From Falciphora oryzae (lineage: Eukaryota > Ascomycota > Sordariomycetes > Magnaporthales > Magnaporthaceae), in contig JNVV01000009.1 in NCBI GenBank assembly GCA_000733355.1, positions 411,521 to 475,520 on the forward strand: DNA of 64,000 bases, written 5' to 3'. The notes below the pieces were generated by a model. That model was not told the origin of the DNA and ran no database searches. It saw only the letters and a program-made list of their open reading frames with translations. The position numbers were made by a program, and so were the translations under genes. Positions within the stretch are counted from its first letter, which is position 1. Each line of letters opens with the position of its first letter. Shown piece by piece: positions 36,726 through 60,443 of this stretch.

Positions 36726-37096
36726 GGCTCTAGATACTTGGATTTTAATCATCTCCATGCTAGGCATCAAAAAAGGCGTACAATCACCATCTCAGCTTGG
36801 TAAAAATACGGCGTCTGGGGTCGATATAATGGGATTTTTGGCGGCTTACAAGGTTCTTTCCAGCTCCTTTTAGATTTGCTATTGCTTCGATTATGTTATG
36901 CTTTTCGAACTTATCATTGGAGTCCCGGGCTGCTACTAGAGGTATGCTTTTCTGCATAATTAATTAGAGCATTAAATCAAGTGAGTGGCATTCATCTCCA
37001 CTCCTCCCGTCACAGAGCCTTCTCAATTTGGCCGCCATGAATGTGTTTGTACCCTATTTCCTTCGGTTTTAGGCGGCGACTTGTAGGTTCGCTGTG
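36726..37096. other. spacer left of the split HET gene
   Basis: 371 bases, AT-rich, between the degenerate gene and the detached 3' end of the HET-domain gene. It is probably that gene's original 3' UTR. No feature recognised. Confidence 0.4.
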
Positions 37097-37230
37097 CTAT
37101 CCAGACTGGTCCCGTTTCCCCCTAACCGGGCTTAGCCCAGCGAGCGCCCAAAAGACCGACAAGAAACTGAGTACAATGGATGCCGGAACTGCCGCATTTT
37201 GAAGATCGCCCGGGTTTGCCGCTTTATAAA
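37097..37230 (-). pseudogene. detached 3' coding end of the HET-domain/ankyrin gene
   Basis: Read on the minus strand from 37230, directly after the target duplication, the sequence encodes YKAANPGDLQNAAVPASIVL and a further run to a TAG at 37097. This is the expected C-terminus of the gene body that breaks off at 52471, 15.2 kb away. The frame is exact: 388 nt of the last exon on the right plus these 134 nt give 522 nt, a multiple of three, and the split valine codon is restored. The residue pattern (a membrane-like segment VLSFLSVFWALAG after NPGDLQNA) matches the usual ending of this HET/ankyrin subfamily. Confidence 0.88.
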
Positions 37231-37238
37231 CTCCAAAA
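37231..37238. repeat. left 8-bp target-site duplication (CTCCAAAA)
   Basis: CTCCAAAA here and at 52471-52478 are identical and abut the TAGGG...CCCTA ends. Eight base pairs is the hAT superfamily size. Both copies lie in coding sequence of the HET gene. Confidence 0.92.
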
Positions 37239-37384
37239 TAGGGACTGCCAAAACCCATAGGACCCATAAAGGACCCAAACCCATTGGACCCAAACCCAAA
37301 ACGGGTACCCATTAGGTACCCGCTGTAGGTTTTAGGTTTTGGGTTTAGGTTTTTTATAGGTTTGGGTTTTGGGTTTTGGGTTTT
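37239..37384 (+). repeat. left end of the hAT-like element
   Basis: TAGGG terminus followed by repeated ACCCAAACCC-like and GGGTACC motifs. It is the inverted counterpart of 52325-52470 and is cut off at 37385 by the gypsy LTR. Confidence 0.8.
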
Positions 37385-37911
37385 TGTAACACCCCACACA
37401 GAACCATGGCCAGCAGCCGCAGGGGACGCCACCGGTGACCACAAGGGAAGCCTCCGGGTGGTAGCCGGAGGGGCGCAAGCCCTAACGGATGTGCGGATCA
37501 AAAAAGTTTAACTTTGCGACACGAGCGCCGATCAGCCCCCGCAAATCAGCCCGGCCCGGAACCCTAAAAGGGACGAAACACATCCGGCTCCGACGGACGC
37601 CGCGGAGGAGGCAGTGTGCCGATAACAACCGAAAAGCAGGCCCCGACGGACGCTACGGAGGAGGAGGCGCGCCAACGACAGCCAAAGGACGGACGGAGGG
37701 CTAAAGCATAAGGAGGGCCCGAAAGACCCCTTGTAAAGGAGGTTGGGAAGGCAAACTATCGTTTTTGTTTTTACCTACACCATAAATTTGTTAAGCCCTG
37801 CACGAATATAACTGTTAAGCTACTGAACCTTTAAAACCTCCCTGCGAAAACCCCCCTTTTTTAGGCCTAACACTACTATAGCTAGCTATAATAAGGCTAA
37901 AGCCTGTTACA
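37385..37911 (+). repeat. gypsy 5' LTR
   Basis: 527 bp, TG...CA ended, aligning over its whole length with 51090-51616. Differences are mostly C/T or G/A. Confidence 0.93.
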
Positions 37912-38459
37912 ACTCGATAGCTTCCTTTATTTAAACCTTCAGCATTTACCAATTACCATATCGGACTTTAACGACTTCGTTAACATTAACGATTTAAGCT
38001 AAAACGAGGATCCAGGAACGGGAACATCCACCCTTTCCTTTAAACGCGAGCAACCTACCCCCAACAACCCTCGTAAATACCCTAACTTTAGCATCCACAG
38101 CGTTATATCCTACATTCGTTCGCAGCTCGCCTATTACGTAACGCGAAACTATATCCCTACCAAAATCCTGCCATAGTTCCAAAAAGCATTTGTGGAACGG
38201 AAGGCAGTTCGCGAAGCCTTTGGCCTCCCAAACGATTCGGACGATCTAAATCGCCTTAATTATAAGCCCCAAATTCCGGCTCGTTCCCAAAGTTTAACCC
38301 TAAAACAGTACGGTTAAAAGGTTAACCGCCCGTTAGGAAAACCCGGCAATTAATCGATACCCCGGGCACCGTCGCACCACACCCTAATAAGGGACGACGA
38401 CGAAAAAAACGACATTTTTCTTTCGTACGATAAAAACAAAAGCAGTTACAAAATCTTAT

Positions 38460-39256
38460 AAAAAATGCCCGAACTAAAGCTTCCAAACTTAATATAGAAC
38501 TTCGACCATTAGGAAAGTAAATTTAACCTTACGTTCGAAGCCAACCTTAACGGCTTTATTACGGCTAAATTACGTATCGCAGCCGCTATCGGAACTTTCG
38601 ATAGCGATTTTAACTCCGCCTATAACGGCTCGCGCAAAGCCAGCCCGGTATTGGGCCTACATTGGCGCAAGTTTATGCGATGGCTCCGTAATACCACATT
38701 GCGAAGAAATTTTTCACTCCTAAGGGCTACTAACGACCTACAGCAACTTATGCAAAAAAATAACGAGGACCTTAGTGTTTTCGCAATACGGTACCGACGT
38801 ATATGCGGCGAAATAGGACAAACAGCAGATATTAACAGCTACGTTGTCCGTTTGGTCCCTGCTTTAAAAGTCCAAATCACCCGCGGAATGCATTATAAAA
38901 CGGAAACTTTGGAAAACCTCGTTGCCACAGCCCAAATCCTTTAGGATACCCTAAATACGGGTGCTCGCGCCCCGTACGACGAAAAGAAAGATTCCTATAA
39001 GTCCTTCCATAAAAAGGACCAAAAGGAATCGAATAAAAACGGGAAGCACAAATTTCGAAGCAAACAAAAGGGGCGTAACCAACGCAACGGCAATGGCAAA
39101 GGCAACGGACGTTCGACGTTTTTAAACGCCGAACGCCAACAACGCCGGGACGAAGGCGTATGCCTTAAATGCGGCAAACCTAACCATATAGCGAAAAATT
39201 GCAAAAACCCCTTTTCCGCTACCAAACCTTTAATTAAAAAGGGCGAATCCCCCTAA
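38460..39256 (+). pseudogene. gypsy gag remnant
   Basis: A frame with a few stops reads MPELKLPNLI, then HWRKFMRWLRNTTLRRNFSL, then a basic region, and ends in a zinc knuckle CLKCGKPNHIAKNCKNP (C-x2-C-x4-H-x4-C) at about 39166-39216. Stops at TAG/TAA replace likely Trp or Gln codons. Confidence 0.8.
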
Positions 39257-39299
39257 AAGGAAAAAGCTAAAGTTAATTTTTTAAAGCGCCGAAAGGAGG

Positions 39300-40162
39300 A
39301 AAGTGGAAAAAAGCAAAGCGAAAAGCGCTAAAAAAACTAAAAGGGAACCCGGTTATCCCCGTACCGACGTTCCGTAACGACCAGATACGCATAGCCTTTA
39401 CGCTCGTTATTAAGGGGACCGTTGGCTTTTTTAACGGCGGTTTGAAAGTTGAAATTAAGGTCGGTTTAAATACGTTCGCTAAAGTTAATACCGTTTTTAT
39501 CACCTTTTGCAAATCCTTGGGCTATAAACTATGCAACCGTTTTAAACACGATTACCAATCCCTTACTTTCGCCGCCGTAAGCGATTAGGGCGTTAAAACC
39601 TATAATATTTACCATTTACGATTAAGCTTTTGTAATTAAAATAGCACTCCGGTGGAAGTTATCCGGCCATTCCTCGCTATCGAACGAAATTTGGCAAACG
39701 CCCTTATTTTTATAGGCATACTATTAATGCAAAAACTGGCTATGGACCTCCACCCGGCTAAAAGCACCTGGTATTTTAACTAACGTTTTTGCATTTATTA
39801 GCTATCCGCATACTATTTCCGAAGGAGCCTTTAAATTAAAAATCGCGTATTTATTTGTTTTTTTCGCTTTAACCCTTTTATCGGCAGCACCAGGGAGGAC
39901 GACCCTTTCGAAAACCGTTTAAACGAACCGCTAAATTTAAAAAACGTTTTTGCAAATTTACGGATAAGTTATTTCGACGTATTCGACGTCCGCAAAGGGA
40001 AAATGCTTTTAAAACATAGCTATAATAACCATGCTATCGATCTGCTCCCGGGCAAAAAGCCCCCGTGGAAGCAGATTTACCACCTGTTTCCAACTAAATC
40101 CACGGCATTTTAGGAATACCTTACCGATGCTTTCGCATAAGGCATTATCCGCGAGTTACAGT
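39300..40162 (+). pseudogene. gypsy protease and start of reverse transcriptase
   Basis: The frame after gag carries a degraded protease-like segment. It then reaches the start of the reverse transcriptase at about 40070-40162 (PWKQIYHLFP, GIIRELQ), where the copia element interrupts it. Stops are frequent. Confidence 0.65.
40158..40162. repeat. left target duplication of the copia element (ACAGT)
   Basis: ACAGT here and at 47756-47760 flank the copia LTRs, giving the 5-bp duplication usual for copia elements. Confidence 0.9.
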
Positions 40163-40788
40163 TATTAATATTGGGAGGTCAAATCGGGGATTTGCAGCGC
40201 AGTCACAGTGGCCAGCAGGGTCTCGGTTAGTTGGATTGGGCCCTGACAGGCGCTATAAATAGCGCTGTCGGGGCCCCAAGCTTAGTGGGTGGAACAGGCT
40301 TGTATTGCAGTTGAGGGGCGCCAACAATCGCTTCCCTTATATACCCACCGATATCGATCCCGCGGGTTTTCCGCCGTGGGGGCTTCCGGTGCCGCGAGCG
40401 ATTTTCCGAAAAATTATTTTGTGTGGGATTTCCAAAAAATCGACCCACGGCCACCAAACCTATCTCCGCGTTGGGCTTCTAATTCTGACTTGTGCAAATT
40501 GACTCCTGACCAATTCTGTGCAGAGTAGATGTGCAGGGTAGGCGAGTTAGTGCGACCCACAACGGCTGACTTGGGTGCTTAGGCATCCTACAGAGGCCAC
40601 AGGCTACCTTTAGGCTTTCGGTAAGCGCTGTAGATGCTGTAAGCCACCCCCGGGTACGCTATAAGCCCTGCCCGCTACTCCTGTGCACAACCCCACAACA
40701 GTACAGGGTAGATAATCTAATAAGAGTAGTATATGGTAGGTTGGGCCTATGCACCCAACTTAGGCTAAATACATTAGTTCTTTTAACA
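40163..40788 (-). repeat. copia LTR (left copy, 3' LTR of the element)
   Basis: 626 bp, nearly identical to 47130-47755. The visible differences are transitions, most with T here and C in the other copy at CpA sites. Confidence 0.93.
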
Positions 40789-40931
40789 CCCCCTCTCTTT
40801 GATTATTTGCTTGCAAAAAAGGAAAAGGCTAATTACGGGATAAAAGAAATAAGGGTTGTAAAGAAAATTTTCTGTGCAGTAACCAGCACTGATTGACAAA
40901 AAGCCTAACCAAAGAGCACTAAGGAAAAAAC

Positions 40932-42284
40932 TTAAGCTGGGGTTTGTAGGCCCATTAGCTTTAAAAAAGCCTTGTGTTTTGGAGGGGTTAAAGGCTTAGT
41001 TAACCTATTAGCGGGCATATTTTTGGTATCGATGTACTGTATCGTAATTGTTTTAGCGCTAACCTCCTCCCTGACGAAATGGAACTTTAGCAGGGTATGT
41101 TTAGTCCTTGCATGCATGGTAGGGTTGTGCGTATTTCCGATAGAACCAGTGTTATCGCCAAAAATAGCAATAGGTCCGTTAATAGGGCTTTGCAGCTTTG
41201 TAAACAGGTACCTTAACCACTTCGCCTTTCGAAGGGTTTCCGCTAAAGCATCAGTTTCAGCCTCGACAGTGCTAAGGGCTATAGTGCTGGCCCTTTTGCA
41301 CTTCCAACTAATAGGACCACCTGCTAGGTAAAATAAATAGCCATAAGTTGATTTTGAGGTGGATTTATCTCCCGTATAATCGCTGTCGCTAAAACCAACT
41401 AATTTTAACAAGTTACTTGCAACTTGTGCATGTATAGGATTTGTTGTTTTCCTTAGGTGCCCGTAGCAGATAGTTATTTGACGGGTTGTACTTAAGTACC
41501 TAAGTAGGTTTTTTGCGGTATTAATATGCGTGTTGGTAGGCGCTGTAAGGTGGCGTGAAATCCATTGAATAGTAAAACCGATATCCGGGCGGGTTAAAAG
41601 CATTAAATACATAACGGTCCTTATAATCCTTTGTAGCAATTTAATTTCGGCAGAGGTTATAGGCGATCCGCTAGTATCGTTTAGCACACCCGGTTGTAAA
41701 GGGATACTTATATTTCGAGAATTTTGCAACCCGAAGGCTATTAGCATTTTATCGATGTACTGGCTTTGGTGGATCCAAAGAAGCCTTTTAGGCCTATCCC
41801 TTATGATTTGAACACCTAAAAAATAGGTGGCAGGCCTACGGTCTTTTAATGCATACACTTTGTTTAACGACTTTTTTAGGGACCGGATATATTTGATATT
41901 AGGCCCTATTAACAAGCAGTCGTCCACTAAGGTGATAATAAAATGCTTTGTTTTTGCATTGAAGTAAACCGCTGGATTAGAAACAAGAGGCGTAAAACCT
42001 TCCTTTTTGAGTAGGGTTTTTAGCTTGTTCTGCCATTTACGGGGTCCTTGTTTTAAACCATATAGTGCCTTTTTTAGCAGGATTACCTGTTTTTCCGAAG
42101 ATTTAAAGCCAAAATGCTTGGCGAGCTTTTTGATTTCGGGGGTTGCAGTAGCTAACTATTCCTTAAAGCCTTTTGGAATACTAAGGTATAGCTCCACGTT
42201 AAGGTTATTGTTTAGAAATGCCCCAATAAAATCGATTTGTTCGATTTCCTAATCTTTTGCTGCAGTAAAGGCTAGCAAAATACG
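40932..42284 (-). pseudogene. copia reverse transcriptase and RNase H
   Basis: The long frame 41927..40932 starts in the catalytic VDDCLLIG block, the copia form of YxDD, followed by TYFLGVQI and LTRPDIGFTIQWISRHL. It ends with RNase H motifs (GFSDSDYTGD, STVEAETDALAE). The fingers and palm region between 41928 and 42284 carries stop codons. Confidence 0.88.
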
Positions 42285-43745
42285 CTAGGTAGGCGGTATA
42301 CTAGTAGAGGCAAAGGTTTCGATAAAATCCAAGCCTTTTATTTGCAAAAAACCCCTAGCAACCAGCTTGGCTTTATACTTTAGGGGGCGATTTTCTTTAT
42401 TTTTTTTGAGCTTAAAAACCGGTCGATAGGTTATTAATCTCCGCCCTTTAGGTAGTTTAGCTTTTGGCAGGAAGTTAAAAGTTCTAGCGCGTAAAAGTTG
42501 CTTGAATTTTAACCCTAAGGCAGTTAACCAATGTTTATTATAGGAGCTTTTTAAAGCTTTTTTATAGGAATTGGGTTCGCCGTCTTTAGCAGGCTTTTTT
42601 TTTTTAACAGCTTGTTTTGCCTTATAGCAGATATAGTGAACGAAATCGTCGATTTCCATTAGGTTTGGTTTAGGTAATGCCTTCCCCAAAGCATTAACGA
42701 GGGTATCGCTAACACGCACTTCCTTATCCATTGTGGGTACTGGTATTTTACGTGTCGGGGGCACTGAAACTGTAGGCTTTTCAGGGGGCCGTATAGTGGT
42801 TTGAACAGGCTCAGGGGGCCTGTATTGCAGGGTAGGTAGCGGAGCTTTTGAAGTCTCCGCAGGCAGTTGATTTGGTAGAGAATCGATTTCCACTTCGCTT
42901 TCAGATTCACTAACGGGGGTAAAAACACTAGTTGGAATAGTGCCTTTTTCAGCAGGGTTTTCGATAGTAACCCCCTCTGAATTATTATCCCCCTTTGGAA
43001 CGAGATTTTCTACTGTTACCCCCTTTAATAGCTTGATTGTAGAGGTTTTATATACCGCCCTTCGTGCAGGCGCATATATAAGGATAGTTGTTTTGCTTAG
43101 GGCTCCGAGGAGCCTGACGGGTTCCGTTCTGGTTGCTAGTTTTTTCGATTTTGCCCTGTGTTCTAGGGGTATCAATGCCTCCGCATGGGTACCAATTACC
43201 TTATAATGGCCTAAATTAGGCCTGTGAGAAGATCCGGGTTCTACTTCGTCATAGAACTTTTGGTAGGGGCAAAGCTCCCTATTAGTGACTGCAGTAGCGT
43301 TCACTAGTTCAACCACGGCAGGTAGGATATAACACCACAAATAAAACGGCAGGCCTGCCGCAGTAATCGTAGCCCTAAGCCTGTTTAAAATCACCTTTAC
43401 AGAGCGTTCTGACAGGCCATTTTGCCCGTGGTTATAGGGGTTTGACGTTTTAAACGCAGTGCTTTTTTTACTGAGCCAATCTTTTAGCGCCAAATTAACC
43501 TCCCTATTACCATTAAAGAATAACTTTGAGGGATAGCGCCCGTAGTTTGCTTTTAGGCCTTTAAAAAAGGACTTTATAGCTGTGTACATTACTGGGCCGT
43601 GCTTATTGGATAGCTGGAAGGTCCACCTATATTTTGATTTTCGATTAATAAGTAGAAGGATTACTGGCTTTCTGTTATGTGGCGTTGGGGATAAAGTAAC
43701 GGTATCCCTTTCGATAGAATTTAGAACGTTATCCGGTGAGGGCAA
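42285..43745 (-). pseudogene. copia integrase and linker to reverse transcriptase
   Basis: 486 codons. The integrase core is recognisable by YNHGQNGLSERSVKVILNRL, which holds the catalytic Glu in the NGLxER block, and by PNLGHYKVIG. The aspartate block reads FFNGNREV, with Asn where Asp is expected, a G-to-A type change. The C-terminal part enters the reverse transcriptase at FNFLPKAKLPKGRRLI and LVARGFLQIKGLDF. Confidence 0.88.
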
Positions 43746-44480
43746 CGGGCCTTTTCTAGTTTTTTACACTGCTACAGTTTTGGCACAAATTGCGCATTGC
43801 AGCCTTTGAACCTTATCAAAGTTAGGGAGACCTGCAGTTATTTTAGCAGTCTTTTTCAGCAACGCTAACCCCAAATGCCCTAATCGGCGGTGCCAAAGCA
43901 GCGCTTTTAGGGCCAGATCTTCATCACACCCTTTTACAACGTCCCCCTTTGCACTTACCTATCCGTCAGCTGACTTTTGGAGGCTTTTAGGGGTAATGTC
44001 GATATTAGGGGCCGCTTGTACCTCACCTACTGGGGGAGACTCGGGCAACGGATTTCTTGCATGGGAAGTCCCCCTTTTTAGTGAAGTAACGTCCTTTGGA
44101 ATAGGCTCTTTAGTGGACTTGTCTAGTGGCTTGCCGAGCTTACGGGGCTTAACTATACGGGAGTTTTCAGGGCTTTTTGCATTAAACTTAGGCTTGGTTC
44201 TAGTGGCCCCCTTTTCTAATTTTTTCTTTTGGTTTAGGGTAGCCTTACCTTTGGTATAGGGTAGCTCTTCCGTTTGATCCGTATTTTCTTTTGAATCAGA
44301 ATCGAAACGAGCATATTCCTTTTGATTTACAGGGGGAACGTTATCAAGTTTAACGCTAATTACGGGAGTTACCCGCTGTAAGGTATGGCTGAAACTTGTG
44401 CTATAGTGAGATCCTTTGCGTACATTGGGCAATATATGCCCTTTAACGTCAAGGAAAAAACCGTTATTAACGGGATCCAA
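43746..44480 (-). pseudogene. copia region between protease and integrase
   Basis: An open frame at 44480..43959 (MDPVNNGFFLDVKGHILPNV...) is followed by a stop-containing stretch that includes the integrase zinc-finger area (ALLWHRRLGHLGL-like, near 43870-43910). The middle is Lys/Pro-rich. Confidence 0.6.
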
Positions 44481-44486
44481 GACGCC

Positions 44487-45458
44487 CTAACATTTGCGAT
44501 TGGAGTTAAATAGCTTGTGTTTGATAAGGACACCGCTTGACTCATAGTGACGAAGACCACTAATGATATTGACATCGAATTTGGGGATAAATAACATATT
44601 TATTAGTGTTATTATTTCGAAATCATTAAGGTTTTTAGAGCATTTTACTGCTATTTTAACAGTGCCTATGCCTTTAGTGATTACGGGGCCGCCACCCGTT
44701 ATAATCTCCTTTTTAGTTTTGGTACTAAAATTAGAGAAAAACTCCATAGAGTTAAAGATGTGATTTGTGCTACCTGTATCGTATAAAATAGGGGCTTTTA
44801 AAGCCTTTTTAGCGTTATTTACAGATTTACAGTGCGTGCAATGCATTGCTACCGGTAAATTAGAGGTAGTTGAAGCCTTTGAATCGGATTTAATATCCGA
44901 AAAGTTACTGTCGTCTGATGCGTTTAGTGACTCCAAGTCCATAGTTTCGCTAGTAGCGTTACTTTCCGAAAACCCTACAGAGGGGTTTTTAGCACCAAAA
45001 TCTCCTGATAGGAGACTGTAATTTAGCATTGCAAAGGAAGTTCCTTTTTTATCGGAGGATTTGTTACCGTTTTTTCTCTTCTTTTTAGATTTATTAGATC
45101 TAGAGGAGCTATTTTGGCTTTTAGGCTTATTTTTAGCCTTTTTGCCTTTCCCCTCAGCGGCTTTCTTCTTTTTCTTTTTACTTTTGCTTTTGCTTTTGGC
45201 ATTGGTACCCTTTTTACCTTTTGGCTTATTTTGCATTTGAGCCTTGTAGTTAGCAGCTTGTTTGTGGGCTGTAGAGATTGGATTATAGGTTTCAGCAATT
45301 AAATCAGCCATTAGGTACTGCAAATTGATGCCTTCGGTAAACTGCCCTAAAGCAGTAGCATTACGAATAGTGCTTCGAAGCCTTTTAGCCCATTGGGGAA
45401 AAGACCCCTTTATGGCTTTTAGGTATTGATTTTTGATATTAATAGCAGCTAATTGCAC
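44487..45458 (-). pseudogene. copia late gag and protease
   Basis: 323 codons. A Lys-rich stretch (about residues 75-130) leads to the aspartic protease motif APILYDTGSTNHIFNS. The catalytic D-T-G is present. A CTHCKS segment just before it may be part of a zinc knuckle. Confidence 0.8.
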
Positions 45459-45638
45459 TTGATTATTCCGGAGCCGAACTAGCAGTGAATTGAAGTAGGA
45501 ATTAAACTCGCTAATACCGCTTTTATATTTAGCGTAGTCTAGGGCATGAAATTCCCTATAAAGGGCATTTCGTTCGATTTCTGGCGTTAGGGAGTAACTA
45601 TCCCTTAGGGCAATAAACGCTTTAGTAGGTGTTGTTTC

Positions 45639-46229
45639 CTACGTTATAGTGTGAAGCACCTTTTTACTGCAACTGTCTTTTAGGAATAGCAACAAATTTG
45701 CTTGATTTGCTAGCGAGATTTGAATAGCCGCTTTAGGGTTTTCTGTAAAACCCGTTACACCCATTGCGGTAAATTGTAGTTCCAGCGTGTGTTTCCATTC
45801 TGCATAGTTTTGGGCCCCTTTTAGTTTTGAGGTTTTAGGAAAAGAGTGCACTTTACGGAATAATTCCCTCATTATTGGGTTGGAGTAGGATAAAATATCC
45901 GCCCAGTTATTAGGGGCCGGTGGTGCTGGCGCAGGTGCCGGTGCAGGCGGCGGAGATGGAGCCCTCGATAAATTAACTAGATTTTCAGATACGCTAGGGG
46001 CAGCAGTTGTAGGGACTCCCAGCTGCCTAGGGATTTGAAGATTTGACGGAGGAAATGTAACCCCCGTTGCCCCCTGTTGTTGCGTTTGTAACGCTTTTAA
46101 AGCCCTAGTTAATTGATCGATGCGCGCCGCTTGTGCGGTTACTGTAGCCAAAATTGTTTCCAGTGCAGTTGGGGCAGTATTACCCCCTTTACTCGTTATT
46201 TGAGTTCCATCGTTTGGGTTGTTTTGCAT
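45639..46229 (-). pseudogene. copia gag N-terminal part
   Basis: The frame starts MQNNPNDGTQITSKGG and contains a coiled stretch (LTRALKALQTQQQ), a Pro/Ala-rich run and LKGAQNYAEWKHTLELQFTA, a pattern common in copia gag. A stop at 45639 separates it from the downstream frame. Confidence 0.75.
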
Positions 46230-47129
46230 ATTTGCTTAAAGTGCCCTATATAGGGTAACTTATAGCAATTTTAACCTCGCAGTTCCTGTTTATAACAGTA
46301 TTGCTTAGATGCCTAAAGGTCACCGTCCTCCAGGACTTTTTAACAGTTGCTTTGCGCTAATTGACCTAAAAGGTGCCTAATCTTTTAGGGTTTTGTTTAA
46401 CAGTTACTGTAGCGCAATTGGCCTGGAGCTTGCAAAATTCTAGGGCTTAAAATACAGGGTAGCTTTAAAGGCTGACTAGACCTTATATTCCCTTAAGGGA
46501 TCGTTACAACTACAATTAGTTGACCTAAAGGTGGCTAGGCCTTAGGATTTTATTTCCAGCTTCCACGTGCATTAACAGGGTTCCCAAAGTGCAGCTATTC
46601 AGCGTTCCTTTAGGTGCTAAATGCACTACTAACACCAATTAAGTCGTTGGTTACCGAAGCAAGCAACTTCCGCTTTAGTGGGTTTACCGCGAGGGTAGAA
46701 CGTTTTTTAGGGTAGGTTACAGACTGCCTTGACCGAGGTGTATTTCCTACGAGGCTGCATAACAATTTGCGCAACGTTACCCCCACGAGTATGAGACTAG
46801 ATAGGTACTTATAGTGCGCTCCTAAGCGCTATAGCCCTCAATTAATAACTGGATATCCTTATTTGGATTATTTACAGCGTTGTGCAACGCCGCAATAAGC
46901 TTTGGTATTAGCGCTCCTTAGCGCCTACTAGTAGGTGTTACTACCTTCTAGCAATTAGCTCTAGTACCTTTAATCCCCCAAATCAAGGCCCTGACTCGCC
47001 CTCTACAGGGCGGTCATAACGTCAATTCGTCGCGCAATCCAGCGATCGCAGGGTCTATCAGTAGGCTTAATTTAGCACTTGATAGGCTCCGATCGCCTGC
47101 CAGTTACTGGATTTCCCGGGCTTATAACC
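46230..47129. other. copia non-coding leader
   Basis: 900 bases between the gag start and the 5' LTR of the minus-strand copia element. AT-rich, no frame recognised. A primer-binding site would be expected next to 47130 but I could not assign a tRNA. Confidence 0.5.
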
Positions 47130-47755
47130 TATTAATATTGGGAGGTCAAATCGGGGATTTGCAGCGCAGTCACAGTGGCCAGCAGGGTCTCGGTTAGTTG
47201 GATTGGGCCCTGACAGGCGCTATAAATAGCGCTGTCGGGGCCCCAAGCTTAGTGGGTGGAACAGGCTTGTATTGCAGTTGAGGGGCGCCAACAATCGCTT
47301 CCCTCATATACCCACCGACATCGATCCCGCGGGTTCTCCGCCGTGGGGGCTTCCGGTGCCGCGAGCGATTTTCCGAAAAATTATTTTGTGTGGGATTTCC
47401 AAAAAATCGACCCACGGCCACCAAACCCATCTCCGCGTTGGGCTTCCAATTCTGACTTGTGCAAATTGACTCCTGACCAATTCTGTGCAGAGTAGATGTG
47501 CAGGGTAGGCGAGTCAGTGCGACCCACAACGGCTGACTTGGGTGCTTAGGCATCCTACAGGGGCTACAGGCCACCTTCAGGCTTTCGGTAAGCGCTGTAG
47601 ATGCTGTAAGCCACCCCCGGGTACGCTATAAGCCCTGCCCGCTACTCCTGTGCACAACCCCACAACAGTACAGGGTAGATAATCTAATAAGAGTAGTACA
47701 TGGTAGGTTGGGCCTATGCACCCAACCTAGGCTAAATACATTAGTTCTTTTAACA
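47130..47755 (-). repeat. copia LTR (right copy, 5' LTR of the element)
   Basis: 626 bp, same length as 40163-40788, ending TTCTTTTAACA on the plus strand, directly before the ACAGT duplication. Confidence 0.93.
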
Positions 47756-47760
47756 ACAGT
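47756..47760. repeat. right target duplication of the copia element (ACAGT)
   Basis: Identical to 40158-40162. Beyond it the gypsy reverse transcriptase resumes. Confidence 0.9.
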
Positions 47761-50700
47761 TATTAGCAAAAGCCCCTGTCATTTTCGTCCTGAAGAAAAA
47801 CGGCACGTTACGATTGTGCGTTAACTATCGAGGACTTAACGACATTACCATTAAAAATAAGGCACCGTTTCCATTAATCGGGGAAATGCTCGACCGCTTA
47901 AACGGTGCCAAGTGCTTGTTTAAAATTGACTTCGTTAATGCGTATTACCGATTTCGCATTAAAAAGGGGGACGAATGGAAAACCGCGTTTCGCACCAAAT
48001 ACGGGCATTACGAGTACCTCGTATTACCGTTCGGATTTACCAACGCCCCGGCATCGTTTTAAACCTACATTAATAAAGCCCTACGGGGCTTAGTGGACGA
48101 TTTCGTTATCGTTTATTTAAACGATATCCTTATTTATTCCGGTAGTAAAAAGGAGCATTAGCACCACCTAAAGCTGGTTTTGGATCGATTTTACAGTTTT
48201 AAGCTTTATACCAATCCCAAAAAGTGCACCTTTTTCCAGCAAAAACTTAAGTTCCTAGGTTTTATCGTTAACACCGAAGGGTTTAAAATGGATCCTGCGC
48301 GTGTTTAGGTCGTCCGCGAATGGATTAACCACCCACCTCGCACGTATAGAGATATCCAGGTTTTTGTGGGATTTTGCAACTTTTATCGACGGTTTATCCA
48401 CGGCTTTTCCCGCATAGCGAAGCCTTTGTACGACCTATTGCAAGGAATAAAAAACGGACGCAAGCCAGGCCAAATAGGCCATTACTGGCAGGAGCCCCAA
48501 CAGCAAGCATTCGAGGACCTAATTAACGCGTTTACGACCGCACCAATGCTGCGGCATTACAACCGACTTTACTATTACGGGTCGAAACGGACGCTTTCGA
48601 TTTTGCTATGGCAAGCATCCTATCGCAAAAGCACGACGGCCAATGGCACCCTATAACCTACTGGTCCCAAAAATTCAAAGGTGCCGAAATTCGGTATCTT
48701 ATATAAGATAAGGAACTTTTCGCAATAATAAGAAGTTTTCGCCATTAGCGACATTATTTCGAAGGGGCGTAAACTACGGAGGTGTTTTCAGATTATAAAA
48801 ACCTTAAGGCTTTTATAAAATAGGAGCGTTTAAACGGACGACAGGCACGCTAGTTATTGCAGTTAGCACCCTACGATTTCGAAATCAAATACCAGCCAGG
48901 GTTTTTAAACCCAGCCGACGTTCCGTTTCGCCAGCCGGACTATATAAACGGTCGCGAAAAAAAACAAAAGATTTTTATTAAAAAACTTTTGCTAACGTTA
49001 TTTAATAAAATGGGTCGGAAATAAAACGTATTTGTTTATAAGCAATACGCAAAAAACATTACCAAAAAAGCGTCGCCTAATAAGCCTCCCCAGCTAGTAA
49101 GCGCAAAAAGCGCACCCAACGAGCGATCCCCCAAAAATTTTATTTTTAACCGGCGAAGCGAGCGGGATAGCGTACGTTTGGCACAACTCACGTTAGCCGA
49201 CGATCCAAACGCCTTTAAGGTTATTTATGCCTTACAAATGCAATTTGTCACTCGTTAAGAGGCACGCATTGCTTTAGATTAGCTTAAAAACAACGTAATT
49301 ACGGATTCCCCGGAAAAAATCCCAACGCCGCTAAAAAAAAATGGATTAGGGACGTGCAAAAGCGGGATCCGGCGAGCATAAATTTGCTTAAAAGGCTAAC
49401 AGTAGTTAAAAAGCCCCGCTTAGCAATACCTAACGTAAAATATACCGTACCGCACCGAAATATTGCGATAACGACTCGGTAGCAAAAAGTATCGTGCTTC
49501 CACCTAGCTAACGGTAACGAGTTAATTTTCCGGGGAAATTAGGTTTATATCCCTACAAACGAGGCTTTAAAAACCGAAATTTTAAAACAGTTTTACGATT
49601 TCCCGGGAACCGGTTACTAAAGCGTAGCTAAAACTTTAAATCTCATCCAGCGCTTTTTTTAATAGGATGGAATTAAAAGGGATATTACGGTATATATGGC
49701 ATCGTGCCTTTAGTGCTAAAGGAAAGCGATTTATCGTTACAAGCCTTACGGCAAATTTAAACCCCTATTACCGCTAAAAAACGGGCAGCTTATAAAAAAG
49801 ATCTTTTTAGATTGGGTAACCGGCTTACTTAAAAGCAAAACGGCGGGTGGTTAGGTTTTTAACGCGATTTTCGTCATCGTATGCCGATTAACCAAATACG
49901 TAGTCTTTATCCCTATACGAACTAACACAAATGCAGGACAATTCGCAAAGCTATTTTTTAAACGTATCGAATGCGTATTCGGTACCCCTAAAAGCATCGT
50001 TAGCGATCGCGATAGCCGCATTACCAGTGGCTTTTGGGAAAAAGTGTGCAAACACCAAATTATTAAAAAACGCATATCGACCGCCTACTATCCTTAAACG
50101 GACGGGCAGACGGAAGTCTTTAACCGCGTTATCAAAAACTACCTCCGCAGCTATTACGCCGGTTTGGAAAACTCTTAGGCATTACTGCTACCGTTAGCAG
50201 CTTACGCTTACAATAACAGCAAAAACTTCACTATAAAGCACTCGCCGTTTTATTTTTTATACGGATCGGATTGCGAAATGCGGATTGATATCGCGGACAA
50301 TATCCTTAAAGGGAAGGTACCCGCAGCAAAAAAGCGCATCGAACGATTTTATGCATTGCGCAAAAAGCTTAAAAAAACGTTACTACAAACATAGGAACGG
50401 TTAGCTAAATACTATAATAAAAACCACATCCCTATGCAGTTCGTAATTGGAAATTTAGTTAAAATATCTACGAAAAACCTGCGTTTAAAAAACAAAAAGT
50501 TAGCACCTAAATAAATCGGTCCCTTCCGAATTACTAAACGCATAGGCTAGCAGGCCTACCGTTTGGCATTTCCCAAGCATTAACGCCGTTTTTACAACGT
50601 TATTCCCGTGCGAAACTTCAAACGGTATACTGCTAAAAAATAAAGAAACGAGGTGCCGCTACCTATACCAAAGTACGAGGACGACCAAAAGGAATGGGAG

Positions 50701-50920
50701 GTCGAAAAAGTACGAAATAAAGGACGGATCCGAAGCAAAAAGTACTACTTGGTTAAATGGATAGATTGGCTAGCAAAGTACAACATTTAGGAGCCCGAAA
50801 AACACCTTCGCGGCGCACCCACGAAAGTACGAGCCTTTCAAAGGGCCCGGAACAAAAGGAACCGAAAGATCCGCAAGCTCCAGGACGTGGAGCCAAGCAG
50901 TAAAAAAGGGGACACCTGAA
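47761..50920 (+). pseudogene. gypsy reverse transcriptase, RNase H, integrase and chromodomain
   Basis: Reverse transcriptase runs [49 protein letters not shown]. The catalytic box reads YLNDILIYS, with Asn for the first Asp of YxDD. GFCNFYRRFIHGFSRIAKPL marks the connection to RNase H. The integrase core block VSDRDSRITSGFWEKV is near 50002. A chromodomain (EWEVEKVRNKG...KYYLVKWIDW, then EPEKHL after a TAG where Trp is expected) lies at about 50690-50810. More than ten in-frame TAG/TAA stops occur. Confidence 0.88.
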
Positions 50921-51089
50921 ATCGCCAAATTGGTTATCCTTTTTTAAAGGTTTTATTAGAAACCAGCGCCTACCCCAAGCAAAGGAAAAAAACGGTCAAC
51001 GCCCTTGCGAATTTACGAAAACTTGTCGTTACACCAGGGAAAAAAAGAAAGTTAGAAGCCGAAGACAGCCTCTTTAGGAAGGGGATAAT

Positions 51090-51616
51090 TGTAACACCCT
51101 ACATAAAACCATAGCCAGCAGCCGCAAGGGACGCTACCGGTAACCACAAAGGAGGCCTCCGGGTGGTAGCCGGAGGGGCGCAAGCCTTAACGGATATGCG
51201 GATTAAAAGAGTTTAACTTTGCGATACGCGCGCCGATTAGCCCTCGCAAATCAGCCCGGCCCGGAACCCTAAAAGGGACGAAATACATCCGGCTCCGACG
51301 GACGCCGCGGAAAAGGCAATGTGCCGATAACAACCGAAAAGCAGGCCCCGACGGACGCTACGGAGGAGGAGGCGCGCCGACGACAGCCGAAGGACGGACG
51401 GAGGGCTAAAGCATAAGGAGGGCCCGAAAGACCCCCTGTAAAGGAGGTTGGAAGGGCAAGCTATCGTTTCTGTTTCTACCTACACCATAAACTTGTTAAG
51501 CCCTGCACGAATACAACTGTTAAGCTGCTGAACCTTTAAAACCTTCCTGCGAGAACCCCCCTTTTCCAGGCCTGACACTACTGTAGCTAGCTATAGTAGG
51601 GCCAAGGCCTGTTACA
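51090..51616 (+). repeat. gypsy 3' LTR
   Basis: 527 bp, equal in length to the 5' LTR and similarly TG...CA ended. Confidence 0.93.
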
Positions 51617-52250
51617 GTGAGGCTACGGATTCCAACTCCCCCAAGGACGCCTTTAAACGACCCCGAACTTTGGACCTTTAAAACGCCCCGGACGGCTAGG
51701 GAAGCAATTTCGCAATCCGAACATATCAAAACTCGGATTTCCAATCACTAGGGCAGCTTTCCAACTCCTATTTATACGGTTGTGGACCAAATTGCAAAGG
51801 GGGCGAAAGCGATAATGCATAAGGTAGCCCTTTTCCAAACCGAGGTATCCACGCTTAGAAAGGCGAACGAGGTACTAAGCAAACGCCGGAGGGCCAAAAA
51901 AACACGTGTTCGATTTGGAAGGTTACTTACTATCGACGAAGTACGAAATGTTTTGGACCAGCAGGAGCTAGATGGATAGTTACAGTAAGAAATGCGCGAC
52001 CATGGGGGTTAGGAAAAAAGGGCGACGACGACTCGTCGGCGATGTGGCACTTGCGGCAAAACCGGATACAATGCGCGCACCTGTTAGGAAGAAGTAGAAA
52101 TGTCCGATGTATATAGTTCCGAATAGTTTGAATGGATTCCTGGCGTTGTTGGGTTGGCATGCGTGTCGATTGACCGGAGGTCGGATGTGGGTGCGCCACT
52201 TACTTGTGTGCGCCACTTACTTGTGTGCGCCATTTACTTGTGAACCACGT
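51617..52250 (+). pseudogene. 3' fragment of a pogo-type transposase element
   Basis: Frames with stops encode TFKTPRTAREAISQSE, QIAKGAKAIMHKVALFQTEV, LRKANEVLSKRRRAKKTRVR and LLTIDEVRNVLDQQELDG, then a zinc knuckle RRCGTCGKTGYNARTC. This is the C-terminal tail of fungal pogo (Tc1/mariner superfamily) transposases, after the DDE catalytic domain, which is missing. The fragment begins exactly at the gypsy LTR edge and ends near ACGT|TA at 52250. It has stops where Gln or Trp is expected. Confidence 0.78.
52191..52241 (+). repeat. three 17-bp tandem repeats at the pogo 3' end
   Basis: GTGCGCCACTTACTTGT occurs three times in a row, with one C-to-T change in the third copy. Tandem subterminal repeats are usual next to the inverted repeats of these elements. 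Confidence 0.85.
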
Positions 52251-52252
52251 TA

Positions 52253-52470
52253 TCCCGATTTTGCCTATTTATTTTACTATAATTCGTTTTACTATTTTTT
52301 TTTTTTCTCATTTCCTTATTTTTTTGGGTTACCCGTAGGTACCCAAAAAAAAACCCAAAACCCAAAACCCAAAACCCAAATGGGTACCCATTTTTTGGGT
52401 TTGGGTCCAAACTTTTGGGTCGACCCACGGGTTGAAATGGGTACCCGTGGGTGGGTTTTGGCCTGCCCTA
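52253..52470 (+). repeat. right end of the hAT-like element
   Basis: An A/T-rich stretch is followed by four AAAACCC units, GGGTACCC boxes and the terminus GGCCTGCCCTA. It matches the left end in inverted orientation. Confidence 0.8.
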
Positions 52471-55400
52471 CTCCAAAATATGCAAAAGGGCCCACCAGTA
52501 TAAGAAAGTGATAGAGAACAACGCGGAAAAATGAAACCGCAAAGACTGGCTCCAGCCCCCAGACTGGCTGTTTCTGATCCTCGCCAAAGCGTTTCGTCCT
52601 CTTGGGGATGCGTGCCAGGTTCTCGGTGCCGGTCTGATCTGGGATGCAGTGGTGAAAAGCTGACCAGGTGCAAGACGGAGGGCAGCTGTAGTAGTAAGCT
52701 TGGAACACGTCGTCTTCAATCGGAGGGTTCGTGGCATCCTGGTGGTCGGGACGGGGATCGTAGCAGTATTCATCCTGTCTAGGAAGATCCGAACGCTCAC
52801 GGGCCATCAAGGCAGGCGCGATTTGCCGGAACTTGTACCAGTTACGGGAGGACATCAGCTATTGCACAGGGGTATGATCGAAGTGCGGCAAGAGAGTGTC
52901 CATGCAACAGACTCACCCTTGTCACCTCACAGTAGTCCAGCTGCCAAATAAGAAACCACAGCCTCCATCGGCCTCGCTGGGTTTCGTAACACTGCTTCAA
53001 CTTCCTAAAGAAGTCGGTATCTGTGTTTTTCTCGTCAAGATCGAATTGGCCAATCGGAGCAACCGCGCTGCTTGGCCACGCTGCTTGGACGCCGACTAAT
53101 ATCCACCACTTTTTCTCGACGGTTGGCTCAGCGGTCTGCACTAGACCGAATTGCCGGAGGGCCTGCGTTCCGAGGGACCCAGTGGGGGCCGCGGCGCTGG
53201 TGCCCTGACTACGAGCTGAGCCGGAAGTGGCGTCGTTTCTTGGAGGCGATGACCCATCGTTGTTGGAAGGAGTATACCGCTGGGCTGCCGATGACCGCGC
53301 CCTGGTGGTGGCAAAGGAAACTGCATTCCGAACCGGGGTGGAAAAGATTTCTGACAGGCTCCGTGCTCTTTTGTGCGAGCATCCGGGTGGGAGGTCCGGC
53401 TTGTCCCTCAAAAGGCTGAGTATCTGCCTCACCGAATCTGCTTGCGCAACGGAAATCTCTTTCCACCGCAGCTCTCCGCAACTCTGTGAAGCGTCAGCGT
53501 CATCTTCAAATACCCACCGCTGAGCACTAGGCCAGCACATTTTGACTTACACATCTCCAGAAAATTCGAGACTCGCCATCTTGCAATGGCCGTCTTCGCC
53601 GCTCAAAAGGCCACCAGTTCCACCTCACCTGCGTGTAGCCCTCCACCCACGACTTCAGCCTATTTGTAACCGAAGTATCCTGCCGCGTCGACAAACTGAT
53701 ATTCTTCCTGGGTACCGATCGAAGCACGCGCATCAACCACGTGGGCAAGAACATGAGCTCAAAGTCTTTGAGCAGCCTCTCATATGATTCAGCCCGTTGT
53801 AGAAAGTTTCTCAGCTCGGAGATGTGCGGGTACTCTTCGTCGATGTCGGTTTCATCTTCGGAGCTTGTTGCTGAGTGCTGAGACTCCTCGCTCGTCGCTA
53901 ATGTGTGATCGTGATGCTCTTTGGGCTTTTCAGCGATGGTCTCAAGCCAGCTTTCCACGCTGCGTTGGTCTTGTGGGGCAACCCGCGCCTCTACCCGGTC
54001 ACCATCCCAGCCTTCCCGATCCTGCTTGAGAAAGGTGGCGAGCTGGTGGCTGATACGGAGTCTCCCCCGACGACTCTGCAAGAGCTTGGCGACCGCTTTC
54101 TCCCCCTCGGTGGCGGCCTCTAGCAGCAGGTTCTTGTAAAAAGACTTCAGCAGCCGCCGCATATTTTGGACAAAGCGCTGGTCCCCCATTGCAGATGTTG
54201 CCTTTTCGCACAGTGCCCTGAATCGTGGCTCCTCGCTTAGGAACATCCTTATCAAGGTCTTTCCGGTAAGTGCTGCGGCGTTTGTCTCATTGGTTGCTTG
54301 AGAAGCGACATCGTCGTTGTCGGACGTGACGGACCGAACGTCATCGTCGGGGTCAGACTTGGGGGATTGGGGCGTAGTTAGGCTTGTTACTCCAAAGACA
54401 GATTGTTGCGAGGATGGTATAAGAGTCGGCGCCCGCGATGCTGATCCATATCCCGAATCTTGGTCTGCGTGCTTTTGGACATCAACTTCCACCAGAGATC
54501 CGGGGTCTGTGTCACGAGATCTTTGAGCCATGCTGGGCAGCTGCACGGGCACATATTCATCAATCCCGTCGATCACGACTACTTTGTTGTTATCCTTGTC
54601 CAGAAGGCGCAGGGTGCTTGGGTCTGCTTCACCCGTGTGACCATGGAACAGTTCTCTGTACCCGTCAACAACTGCTTGAAGGCTCGGGTGTTTTTCAAGA
54701 AGCTTATGCATGGGCGCCTGACGATCCCAGATGGCCCGAGTGGATAGGAGGGCCTCGATGATGGTATGATTTCTTGGAAGCCCCGAAGGTTCCGTCCAGG
54801 CTGATTCCAGCGGTGTCATGCCATTAGAGCCAACGTGCCATATATCGATGTCGGGCCGGGAAACAAGGACTCTTGCCATTCTAACATTTCGCGAGTTGAC
54901 AGCAAGGTTCAGGGCGCTGTCTCCCTGATAGGCGAAGTTGACCCCTATGTCGTCCCGCTCGAGAAGGATTCTTGCTAGATTTTCGTCACCGTCGTTTCCT
55001 CGCTGGGCCAGAAGACACAGAGCTGGGCACTGTGTTGCTGAAAAGTCGTCGATCTGGATTTCGGATCGCTCTCGAAGGAGAGCAGCTAAGGAATTTGGCC
55101 GATTTGTCTCAACAGCCCATCGCAACAAAGTATTTGCCAATTTGGTAGGTGAACCAAGGGGTTCTGTGAGCTTAAAACCCCTCAGTTCGACCAAAACCTC
55201 TTCTTGGCCAGCCATGCTCTTATCAGGGAACAAGAAGGACCAGAGAGTTTCCGCAACCGTCTGCTCCATAGCCGCTTCGTAATACCGCTTTAGTAGGCCA
55301 TCATCCGAAGCTACTGGTAGCAGGGCGGAGGCTTTATCCCTAGGATCTGAGGCCTTGCGTTTGGTGACATTGCGGAGCAGGGAGAAGAGTTTGCCGGCGC

Positions 55401-56232
55401 CGTTCGCTCGTGATTCCGCTCTCAACGCACCTTGCACTAATATGTCGAGGATCGGTCGGGCGTGTGTGGGAAGAAGAATAAAGTGGCGGATAGAAGGCAT
55501 CACGAGTGCCCCTGAACTAATGGCATCACGCCCGTACATGATGACAGTTTGTTTTGCGGCTGCCACATCTTGTATAGTCCAGGTGCGTGAGAACCATGGG
55601 CTCCTGCAAAGGACAGAAAGCATGTCTTGTGGTGTCTGGCGGCGTTTGGTCTCAGCATCTTCTCCTTGGGCAGCAGCACAAGCCTGTGAGGCGCCGGAAG
55701 GGACCATTCCCGGGGGCTCATCGGGGTTTGAAAAAGGTGAGTCCCTGTTAAGGCCCCGAGAATCAAGCAGTTCTCGATCAGAACCGCGCAACCATTGCAT
55801 GGCAGTTTGCGTTTCCGATGTTTCGGGCCCCAGCCAAATAATCACACTTGCGGCTTCAGCAAATATGCGCCGCGTCAACGAGATTTGTTCCCTCTTTTCC
55901 ATCGCATCATCTTGATTGATGCAGATGGCATCTATCCACAGAACTCTGACTTCTCCTGGGAGACGAATATTTGTCAGGGCGCAGTGGAGGCTGGACGTGG
56001 CGGTGACTTGGTGTTTGTCCACGAGGATTTCCCTAGAGTTTGAGGCGTCGCCCCATACGTAGGAGAGGGCCTCATAAGAGACTATGTCGTTATGATCCGC
56101 ATCCTCGCCGAGAGAAGCTTCAAATAGCTCGCAACTAATCGGATCGCTGTCATGGACCGCAGGCAGGAGACGAAGAAGTCGAATCTCACGCCTTTCCGGG
56201 TCAAGTGGACGGTAGTCGATGCGTGCTGACAT
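52316..56232 (-). CDS. HET-domain/ankyrin protein, last exon split by a transposon
   Basis: Exons 56232..53551, 53483..52917 and 52858..52471 are native. The frame then reads about 50 codons into the hAT end and stops at 52316 (about 1263 residues). The ATG at 56346 is also in frame, but MSARIDYRPLDPERREIRLL is the usual HET-protein start. HET blocks: YEALSYVWGDA near residue 55, VLWIDAICINQDD and SPWFSRTWTIQDVAAA. Degenerate ankyrin repeats follow (residues of about 380-500, e.g. GDSALNLAVNSRNVRMARVL). The C-terminal block FFRKLKQCYETQRGRWRLWF and FQAYYYSC is standard for the subfamily and normally ends in two hydrophobic stretches. The first remains here and the second lies at 37097-37230. 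Intron 1 has a CTGAC branch site. Confidence 0.88.
52471..52478. repeat. right 8-bp target-site duplication (CTCCAAAA)
   Basis: Identical to 37231-37238. On the minus strand it is the TTTTGGAG of the HET gene's last exon. Confidence 0.92.
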
Positions 56233-59272: not shown

Positions 59273-60443
59273 TCAGTAGAGTCTGGCGCAAAACCCGTCC
59301 AGCGCGGCACCGTCGTGCCCCTGCCACCGGCCTACTACGGCCACCAGCCCGTTGAGCCTGATCAGGGCGCCCGTGACGACCAGGAGGTGCATCCAGTTGT
59401 GGCTCTGGCCGACCAGGTCGAAGCGGCCGGGGAACCATCGTTCTGGGATGCGCATGGCGTACACGGCTGAACCGGAGAAGTTGACCACCGCGAGGCCAAA
59501 GAAGGAGACGAGTCCCGCCATCTCATCTAGCCGCTGCCAGCCGAACCTGTGGAGCCCCTGAACGACGGGAGTGAACAGGCTGGTGCCCAGCAGGGCATAC
59601 ATCAGGAAGCGAACAGCCCGGTAGGATGGCTGTCGGAACTTGGGCTGTAAGGTAAAGATGCCGCAGCCGATGGCGGCGGCGGTAAGCAGGGCGAGATAGA
59701 CGTTGCGGACGGCGGGATGGCAGTAGAAGGCGAAGTGCGCGACCGACACGCCGGTGCCCCACATGACGAAAACAATGCCCAGGTGGTCGAGCTCGTTGCC
59801 CAGCTTGTGTATCTCCGGGCTGTGGTCGGAGAAGGTATGGAATGAGGTTGATAGGACAAAGCAGACGACTACGGCCATGTAGTAGACGCCCAGAGCAACT
59901 CCATCCTCGGTTCTCACGCCGTCCGCCAGGTGGGAGAGGATGAAGAAGTGGGCGAAGAGGCTGGCGAAGAGGAGAGCGCCCAGCAGATGGGACCAAATGT
60001 TTGCTTGTAAGTTATTAGCTACTGATCGGTTCTGTGTGTATGCTTGTGGTGGGAAATGGTAGGCATACCAGTCTCATTGTGGACGGTAAAGATGCTCCAT
60101 ATCGAGGTGATGTAAGAGAACGAAGCGCGTCTGCTCGAGAAGTGTTAGGCGCGATCAACAGCTGGGCATGCAGGACGGAAGGGCATACCGGTAGCCAGTT
60201 AGAATAAACTCGTTATCTCTGTGCAGGCGTGTGACCTGATTGTTAGAGGTATATACCTGCGCAAACATATCGCTGGGTTCACGTACCGTTGCCAGGGGGC
60301 TATGCAGAAAGAACGGGAAGGTTAGCATTGTTCGCCATGGTGCAAACCGCACGCCCTCGCGCCAGTTTTCATCGCAGCAACTTACCAATCTCAGCCCATG
60401 TCAAAAACCCGTCGCGGGCTGGGCCTTGGGCGTTTCTTCCCAT
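59273..60443 (-). CDS. PAQR / hemolysin-III family membrane protein
   Basis: Five exons, 60443..60386, 60299..60287, 60218..60189, 60130..60069 and 60003..59273, give 297 residues. The joins restore the family signature step by step: FLTWAEIAPWQRDNEFILTG, then YRRASFSYITSIWSIFTVHN and ETANIWSHLLGALLFASLF. Later motifs are STSFHTFSDHS and SHNWMHLLVVTGALI, holding the conserved His/Ser residues of a metal site. Seven membrane helices are expected. Relatives are adiponectin-type receptors and yeast Izh proteins, which act in lipid and zinc homeostasis, probably as ceramidase-like enzymes. The 13-nt second exon is unusually small. The protein is close to the family's normal length. Confidence 0.9.

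What the first reader, a model, noticed from the sequence alone, without database searches (positions are those of the whole stretch)
37097..56232. A HET-domain/ankyrin gene split by a 15.2-kb transposon nest, with its C-terminus recovered on the far side
The last exon of the gene (52858 leftwards) runs in frame to TTTTGGAG at 52478-52471, then enters the hAT terminus. The same 8 bp occurs at 37238-37231, where the minus strand continues as YKAANPGDLQNAAVPASIVL to a stop at 37097. The split codon and the phase agree (388 + 134 = 522 nt), and the segment is what the C-terminus of this HET subfamily should look like. So a recognition gene linked to allorecognition death was broken by a dated, precise insertion. 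That could be a loss-of-incompatibility allele, a relaxed pseudogene, or a presence/absence polymorphism in the population.
Basis: partly seen in the sequence, partly recalled or inferred. Interest (0 to 1): 0.9.

Follow-up and report, generated by a model that had tools for sequence, protein, structure and literature searches.

The report
Fungal death-domain gene split by transposon
A fungal gene of the kind used to sense foreign cells and trigger cell death has lost its last membrane-anchoring piece because a mobile element landed inside it and then filled with other mobile elements; the break is real and unusually clear, but such broken recognition genes are already known in fungi.

Summary
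A HET + ankyrin gene (minus strand, start codon 56232) is cut by a non-autonomous hAT element at 37239-52470 (15,232 bp) flanked by the 8-bp duplication CTCCAAAA. Searched apart, the pieces match one intact protein of Gaeumannomyces tritici (P0001): exon 3 at residues 1107-1226 (90%) and the far piece 37097-37228 at 1229-1271 (86%, to the stop), both ungapped. Of 11 database relatives of this C-terminus, 8 reach the end and all 8 have two hydrophobic segments there; the insertion falls between them.

Corrections: exon 3 starts at 52831, not 52858 (phase unchanged). 'Dated' is not supported: 41 of 42 Gypsy-LTR and 12 of 12 Copia-LTR differences are transitions (RIP-like), and the Gypsy flanks do not match.

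Most likely this is a loss-of-function or weakened allele: HET, ankyrin and one helix remain, and a 51-residue hAT-encoded tail replaces the second helix. Population status is untestable with one assembly. Transposon-broken recognition genes are known (Podospora nwd2). The more novel by-product is a C-terminal membrane module, without a Pfam model found here, attached to several different receptor-type N-termini.

The parts
53551..56232 (-). Exon 1: start codon, HET domain, ankyrin repeats, and the start of the C-terminal module (894 codons)
   Evidence: Pfam HET 4.3e-31 and Ank_2 7.2e-10; 55% identical to P0001; GTAAGT donor at 53550
53484..53550 (-). Intron 1
   Evidence: GT-AG borders; homology resumes at SCG
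52917..53483 (-). Exon 2: C-terminal module, middle part (189 codons)
   Evidence: 72-73% identical to P0001
52832..52916 (-). Intron 2
   Evidence: GTGAGT donor, AG acceptor; homology resumes at FRQIAP
52471..52831 (-). Exon 3, native part: includes the first hydrophobic segment; its last bases are the 8-bp duplication
   Evidence: 90% identical to P0001 1107-1226, 93% to P0121 1411-1531
52471..52478 (+). Target-site duplication CTCCAAAA, right copy
37231..37238 (+). Target-site duplication CTCCAAAA, left copy
37097..37230 (-). Orphaned C-terminus: two bases of the split codon, 43 codons and the stop, with the second hydrophobic segment
   Evidence: 37 of 43 identical to P0001 1229-1271, 39 of 43 to P0121 1533-1575
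37239..37384 (+). hAT element, left part with terminal inverted repeat
   Evidence: 95% identical over 147 bp to two-ended genome copy L028
52297..52470 (+). hAT element, right part with terminal inverted repeat (inner border approximate)
   Evidence: 91% identical to L028 202-373; other two-ended copies 87-96% over their aligned parts
52316..52470 (-). Tail read into the hAT end as the sequence stands: 51 residues (the first shares its codon with the duplication) to a stop, with a hydrophobic stretch
   Evidence: ORF to 52316; mean hydropathy 1.5 over 19 residues
37385..51616 (+). Gypsy-type LTR element (LTRs 37385-37911 and 51090-51616); flanks GTTTT and GTGAG do not match
   Evidence: RNase H-like match below its cut-off (21.3 against 29.8 bits); control flanks
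40163..47755 (-). Copia-type LTR element nested in the Gypsy element, flanked by ACAGT on both sides
   Evidence: LTRs 98.1% identical, flanks; RVT_2 2.7e-21
51617..52225 (+). 3' end of an abundant pogo/Fot-like DNA transposon (5' half absent)
   Evidence: 40 other matches listed with 40 of 269 candidates scored; fuller copy L052 has HTH_Tnp_Tc5 and HTH_psq

Best explanation
A non-autonomous hAT element inserted into the last exon of a HET/ankyrin gene for which no other full copy was found in the genome, duplicating 8 bp (shown). It then received a pogo/Fot-like element and Gypsy sequence, and later a Copia element inside the Gypsy (order shown by nesting); that two Gypsy copies recombined and removed the middle of the hAT is inferred from unmatched flanks. 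HET domain, ankyrin repeats and the first C-terminal hydrophobic segment remain in frame, but the second segment and the charged end are cut off, and a hAT-encoded tail follows instead (shown as sequence, not as protein). Inferred: the intact protein is a membrane-attached receptor whose HET domain triggers cell death when the ankyrin/C-terminal part is engaged. Without the paired-helix anchor this allele most likely signals poorly or not at all.
For: TSD and TIRs; two-ended family copies with 8-bp TSDs, 8 of 9; pieces in order and ungapped on P0001 at the break; second hydrophobic segment in all 8 relatives with a complete C-terminus out of 11 found and, by eye, in the own-genome paralogue L039; only this locus covers the whole of P0001 among the 37 of 102 candidates scored; HET domains induce death and are remotely TIR-like (PMC9815663, passages).
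Against: The three exons are free of stops and read in single frames with GT-AG splice sites, so the gene up to the insertion is not decayed. The hAT tail has its own hydrophobic stretch that could act as a helix. No expression or phenotype data exist here, and the role in allorecognition rests on domains only.
Confidence: 0.8

Rival explanations
1. The truncated allele is still a working protein: the hAT end supplies a replacement hydrophobic helix and stop, giving a chimeric receptor with altered or self-active signalling.
For: Open frame runs 51 residues into the hAT with a 19-residue hydrophobic stretch bordered by lysines; upstream exons undamaged and without the RIP-like indices of the nest.
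Against: Hydrophobic low-complexity frames also occur in other copies of this element (19-residue maxima up to 1.98), so the stretch is a property of the element and no sign of selection. The far piece shows no more divergence than exon 3 (Fisher p 0.52 and 0.57), so an undamaged frame may only mean recent insertion.
Confidence: 0.12
2. The insertion is one allele of a balanced presence/absence or active/inactive polymorphism, as at Podospora nwd2 or het-v.
For: Precedents: nwd2 inactivated by a transposon in all het-s isolates analysed so far (PMC3321046, passages); five genes at het-v replaced by a transposon cluster in the V1 strain Y (PMC9262711, passages). The HET/ankyrin part differs more from P0001 than the C-terminal module does.
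Against: No second isolate of this species was available; divergence from one protein does not show selection.
Confidence: 0.25
3. The split is an assembly error, and the gene is intact in the living strain.
For: Repeats of this kind are hard to assemble (general knowledge; no call).
Against: A matching 8-bp duplication exactly at both element ends, with both gene halves in order and in phase on one contig.
Confidence: 0.02

Closest known systems
Podospora anserina nwd2 inactivated by the REPA element in het-s strains (PMC3321046, passages seen)
   Same: A fungal recognition-type gene interrupted by a transposon
   Different: nwd2 is a STAND gene beside het-S with a survey of isolates; here a HET/ankyrin/membrane-module gene, one genome, no phenotype
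Podospora het-v, V1 strain Y, where five genes are replaced by a cluster of transposable elements; het-Vb pseudogenes in Neurospora (PMC9262711, passages seen)
   Same: Loss of recognition genes at a transposon-rich site
   Different: There genes are absent or stop-coded; here one gene is split with both halves preserved
Gaeumannomyces tritici RB601_001390 (P0001)
   Same: Aligns with 98% of exon 1 and with the whole C-terminus; HET domain above cut-off
   Different: Uninterrupted; 55% identity in exon 1; its ankyrin match is below the Pfam cut-off (24 against 27.3 bits)
Gaeumannomyces hyphopodioides RB595_003849 (P0121)
   Same: Same C-terminal module (93% in exon 3, 91% in the far piece)
   Different: Sacsin-like N-terminus instead of HET and ankyrin

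Membership tests
HET-domain protein (PF06985) | Match to the HET profile above the curated cut-off | tested here: met
   108.7 bits against 22.5, residues 53-221
HET-domain protein (PF06985) | Induces cell death on recognition | not testable with these tools
   Needs expression or barrage tests
Ankyrin-repeat protein | Ankyrin profile above cut-off | tested here: met
   Ank_2 39.7 bits against 27.3; the single-repeat models Ank, Ank_3 and Ank_4 are below their cut-offs
Non-autonomous hAT element | Terminal inverted repeats and 8-bp target-site duplication | tested here: met
   8 of 9 two-ended genome copies also have it
Non-autonomous hAT element | Mobilised by a related transposase in the genome | tested here: inconclusive
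   3 Dimer_Tnp_hAT matches in the genome, not linked here to these termini
Transposon-inactivated allorecognition allele (nwd2/REPA kind) | Coding sequence interrupted by a transposon | tested here: met
Transposon-inactivated allorecognition allele (nwd2/REPA kind) | Intact allele segregates in the same species | not testable with these tools
   One assembly only
Transposon-inactivated allorecognition allele (nwd2/REPA kind) | Gene shown to control incompatibility | not testable with these tools
   Needs crosses or barrage tests

The most novel reading that the evidence does not exclude
The C-terminal module ending in two hydrophobic segments is an unrecognised plug-in membrane unit of fungal immune-type receptors. 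The same unit is attached to HET+ankyrin, HET alone, NB-ARC-like+TPR, AAA, sacsin-like and DUF7580 N-termini (and its first half to a caspase), and this insertion is a natural knock-out of its second hydrophobic segment. It would define one membrane-linked class of fungal death receptors.
Probability: 0.35. Interest if true: 0.65.

Novelty: new member of a known kind. Interest (0 to 1): 0.42.

Why it matters
It is a clean, checkable case of a transposon disabling (or reshaping) a HET/ankyrin gene, with both halves and the target duplication preserved, so an empty-site allele can be sought with two PCRs. It also points to a C-terminal membrane module, with no Pfam model found here, shared by several receptor types linked to fungal cell death. 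That offers a way to ask where these receptors act in the cell.

Tried and rejected
Dating by LTR divergence: rejected. Gypsy LTRs differ at 42 of 528 sites (41 transitions, 1 transversion), Copia LTRs at 12 of 626 (all transitions). Against an assumed two-thirds transitions this is p = 9e-7 and 0.008. By context of the C-bearing copy, 16 of 41 Gypsy transitions are CpA and 18 CpT (background 94 and 134 of 580), and 9 of 12 Copia transitions are CpA (background 165 of 656); so the Gypsy differences are not confined to CpA, and RIP is the likeliest but not the proven cause. TA/AT and composite indices are raised across the nest and not in the gene. In addition the Gypsy flanks GTTTT/GTGAG do not match. 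Six control places were checked: 4 have matching 5-bp flanks, 1 had an unreadable right end and 1 (C89, 2 kb apart, not full spacing) does not match; five further flank stretches fetched were not used.

Purifying selection on the truncated frame: not claimed. The far piece, cut off from its promoter, is as well conserved as exon 3, so an undamaged frame says nothing about function.

Species name: not determined. The three protein searches went to exon 1 and the module; the closest protein is from Gaeumannomyces, so a Magnaporthales fungus is an inference only. Literature searches listed no title on this gene; searches returned nothing. The Gaeumannomyces genome paper PMC11905480 (term search and passages only) has no occurrence of 'heterokaryon', 'HET domain', 'vegetative incompatib' or 'allorecognition' in its main text. 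PMC10890737 (passages) held nothing that bears on transposon insertion.
Full report
The observation. The minus-strand gene starting at 56232 has a HET domain (108.7 bits, cut-off 22.5) and ankyrin repeats (Ank_2, 39.7 bits, cut-off 27.3) in its first exon. The sequence CTCCAAAA occurs at 37231-37238 and 52471-52478, directly outside two terminal inverted repeats of the form TAGGG...GCCAAAACCC. The enclosed stretch is 15,232 bp. The right terminus is repeated in the source genome G000 (50.2 Mb, 123 contigs, 40 of 85 candidates scored). Of 15 other copies fetched, 9 have both ends (118-435 bp) and 8 of these 9 have a perfect 8-bp duplication (L031 does not); 6 show only the right end in the stretch fetched. 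The outer element is therefore a small non-autonomous hAT whose middle is occupied by other elements; 54 bp of its centre are missing by comparison with copy L028.

The gene pieces. The nearest protein is P0001 of Gaeumannomyces tritici (1271 aa, 55% identical over 98% of the exon 1 query). Each piece was compared with it alone. Exon 1 covers P0001 23-922, exon 2 about 923-1106, exon 3 1107-1226 at 90%, and the far piece 1229-1271 at 37 of 43, ending at the stop. P0121 of G. hyphopodioides gives 93% and 91% for exon 3 and the far piece, also ungapped.

What was lost. Among 11 relatives of the C-terminal module returned have a complete C-terminus, and all 8 have two hydrophobic segments there; P0126, P0129 and P0130 end earlier. 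A paralogue in the same genome (L039, contig 67, DUF7580 N-terminus) also keeps this end, judged by eye. The insertion falls between the two segments: the first stays with exon 3 (mean hydropathy 2.09) and the second is in the far piece (2.01). As it stands, the frame runs 51 residues into the hAT, including VPIWVLGFGFWVFFWVPTG (1.5), then stops at 52316-52318. Hydrophobic frames occur in other copies too (maxima up to 1.98), so this is an element property and not evidence for function.

The nest. The Copia element is flanked by ACAGT on both sides. The Gypsy element is flanked by GTTTT and GTGAG. Of six control places, four have matching 5-bp flanks, one had an unreadable right end, and one with its LTRs only 2 kb apart does not match. 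The right neighbour, 51617 to about 52225, is the 3' end of an abundant DNA transposon (40 other matches listed, 40 of 269 candidates scored) whose fuller copy L052 carries HTH_Tnp_Tc5 and HTH_psq domains; the label pogo/Fot-like is partly recalled. The simplest reading is that two Gypsy copies, one in the hAT and one in the pogo-like element, recombined and lost what lay between. That is inference.

Why the date fails. LTR differences are almost all transitions (41 of 42 and 12 of 12). The C-bearing copy is CpA or CpT at 34 of 41 Gypsy sites and 11 of 12 Copia sites, against backgrounds of 228 of 580 and 317 of 656. TA/AT is 1.05-1.85 in the fifteen 1-kb bins from 37001 to 51001 against 0.49-0.56 in bins 53001-55001 of the gene. 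RIP-like mutation, not time, made most differences. The far piece, which presumably has not been translated normally since the insertion, is not more diverged than exon 3 (39/43 against 113/121 for P0121, p 0.52; 37/43 against 108/120 for P0001, p 0.57). This fits a recent event but sets no date, and with 43 residues the test is weak.

Function. HET domains induce cell death and are remotely related to TIR domains (PMC9815663, passages). That this protein is a recognition receptor is inferred from domains. No intact second copy was found: of 38 matches to P0001 (37 of 102 candidates scored), 4 are this locus, 2 the DUF7580 paralogue at 40-47%, and 32 others are 25-38% identical, most of them in the HET region. 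A damaged or weakened allele is most likely.

The module. N-terminal partners by Pfam: HET (P0001, ankyrin below cut-off there), sacsin-like (P0121), TPR with NB-ARC just below cut-off (P0122), NB-ARC/AAA-like, all below cut-off (P0123), AAA (P0124), HET (P0125), DUF7580 (P0128, L039), caspase (P0130); P0127 is the module alone, and P0126 and P0129 have no N-terminal family above cut-off. P0129 and P0130 carry only the first half of the module, P0126 a weak version (26%). No Pfam model above its cut-off covers the module. A NACHT-ankyrin gene on contig 55 (L059) has a distant version of the first half, 24-33% identical. Seven of the 11 relatives have a [DE][ST]G[YF][AG]S motif just before the module. 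From memory, related C-termini without the hydrophobic end are common in fungal proteins; I did not test that. The AlphaFold model was weak and fold searches were inconclusive. The searches were length-limited and scored only about 8000 candidates each, so the distribution is a lower bound.

Comparison with the known. Transposon-inactivated or otherwise lost recognition genes are established: nwd2 in Podospora het-s strains (PMC3321046, passages); het-v genes replaced by a transposon cluster in strain Y, and Neurospora het-Vb pseudogenes (PMC9262711, passages); NWD pseudogenes by RIP or rearrangement (PMC1805685, passages); and a null allele at hetE in Aspergillus fumigatus and relatives (PMC11138114, passages). 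This case is a new member of that kind, well preserved, with its population meaning still open.

Noticed in passing
37380-37384 and 51617-51621: Gypsy element flanks do not match although its LTRs are complete; it is probably a recombinant of two copies.
   Followed up: partly
P0001 about 600-1271; P0121-P0130: C-terminal module without a Pfam model, shared by proteins with HET, NB-ARC-like/TPR, AAA, sacsin-like, DUF7580 and (first half only) caspase N-termini.
   Followed up: partly
L039 1518-6006 (contig 67): Paralogue in the same genome: DUF7580 plus the same C-terminal module with both hydrophobic segments; apparently uninterrupted, but its exon structure was not worked out.
   Followed up: partly
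L059 2018-5965 (contig 55): NACHT-ankyrin gene with a distant version of the module's first half.
   Followed up: partly
P0001 615, P0121 912, P0130 337 and others: A DSGYGS-like motif marks the border between variable N-termini and the module in 7 of 11 relatives; it resembles a phosphodegron (recalled, untested).
   Followed up: no
53551-56232: Identity to P0001 by 50-residue bins is 38-68% in the HET/ankyrin part (P0001 1-500), 23-37% in 501-600, 58-86% in the module part of exon 1; then 72% in exon 2 and 86-90% at the C-terminus.
   Followed up: partly
59273-60073, 31413-32252, 29161-30507: Neighbouring genes: HlyIII-type membrane protein, Spherulin4 family, DUF4419.
   Followed up: no
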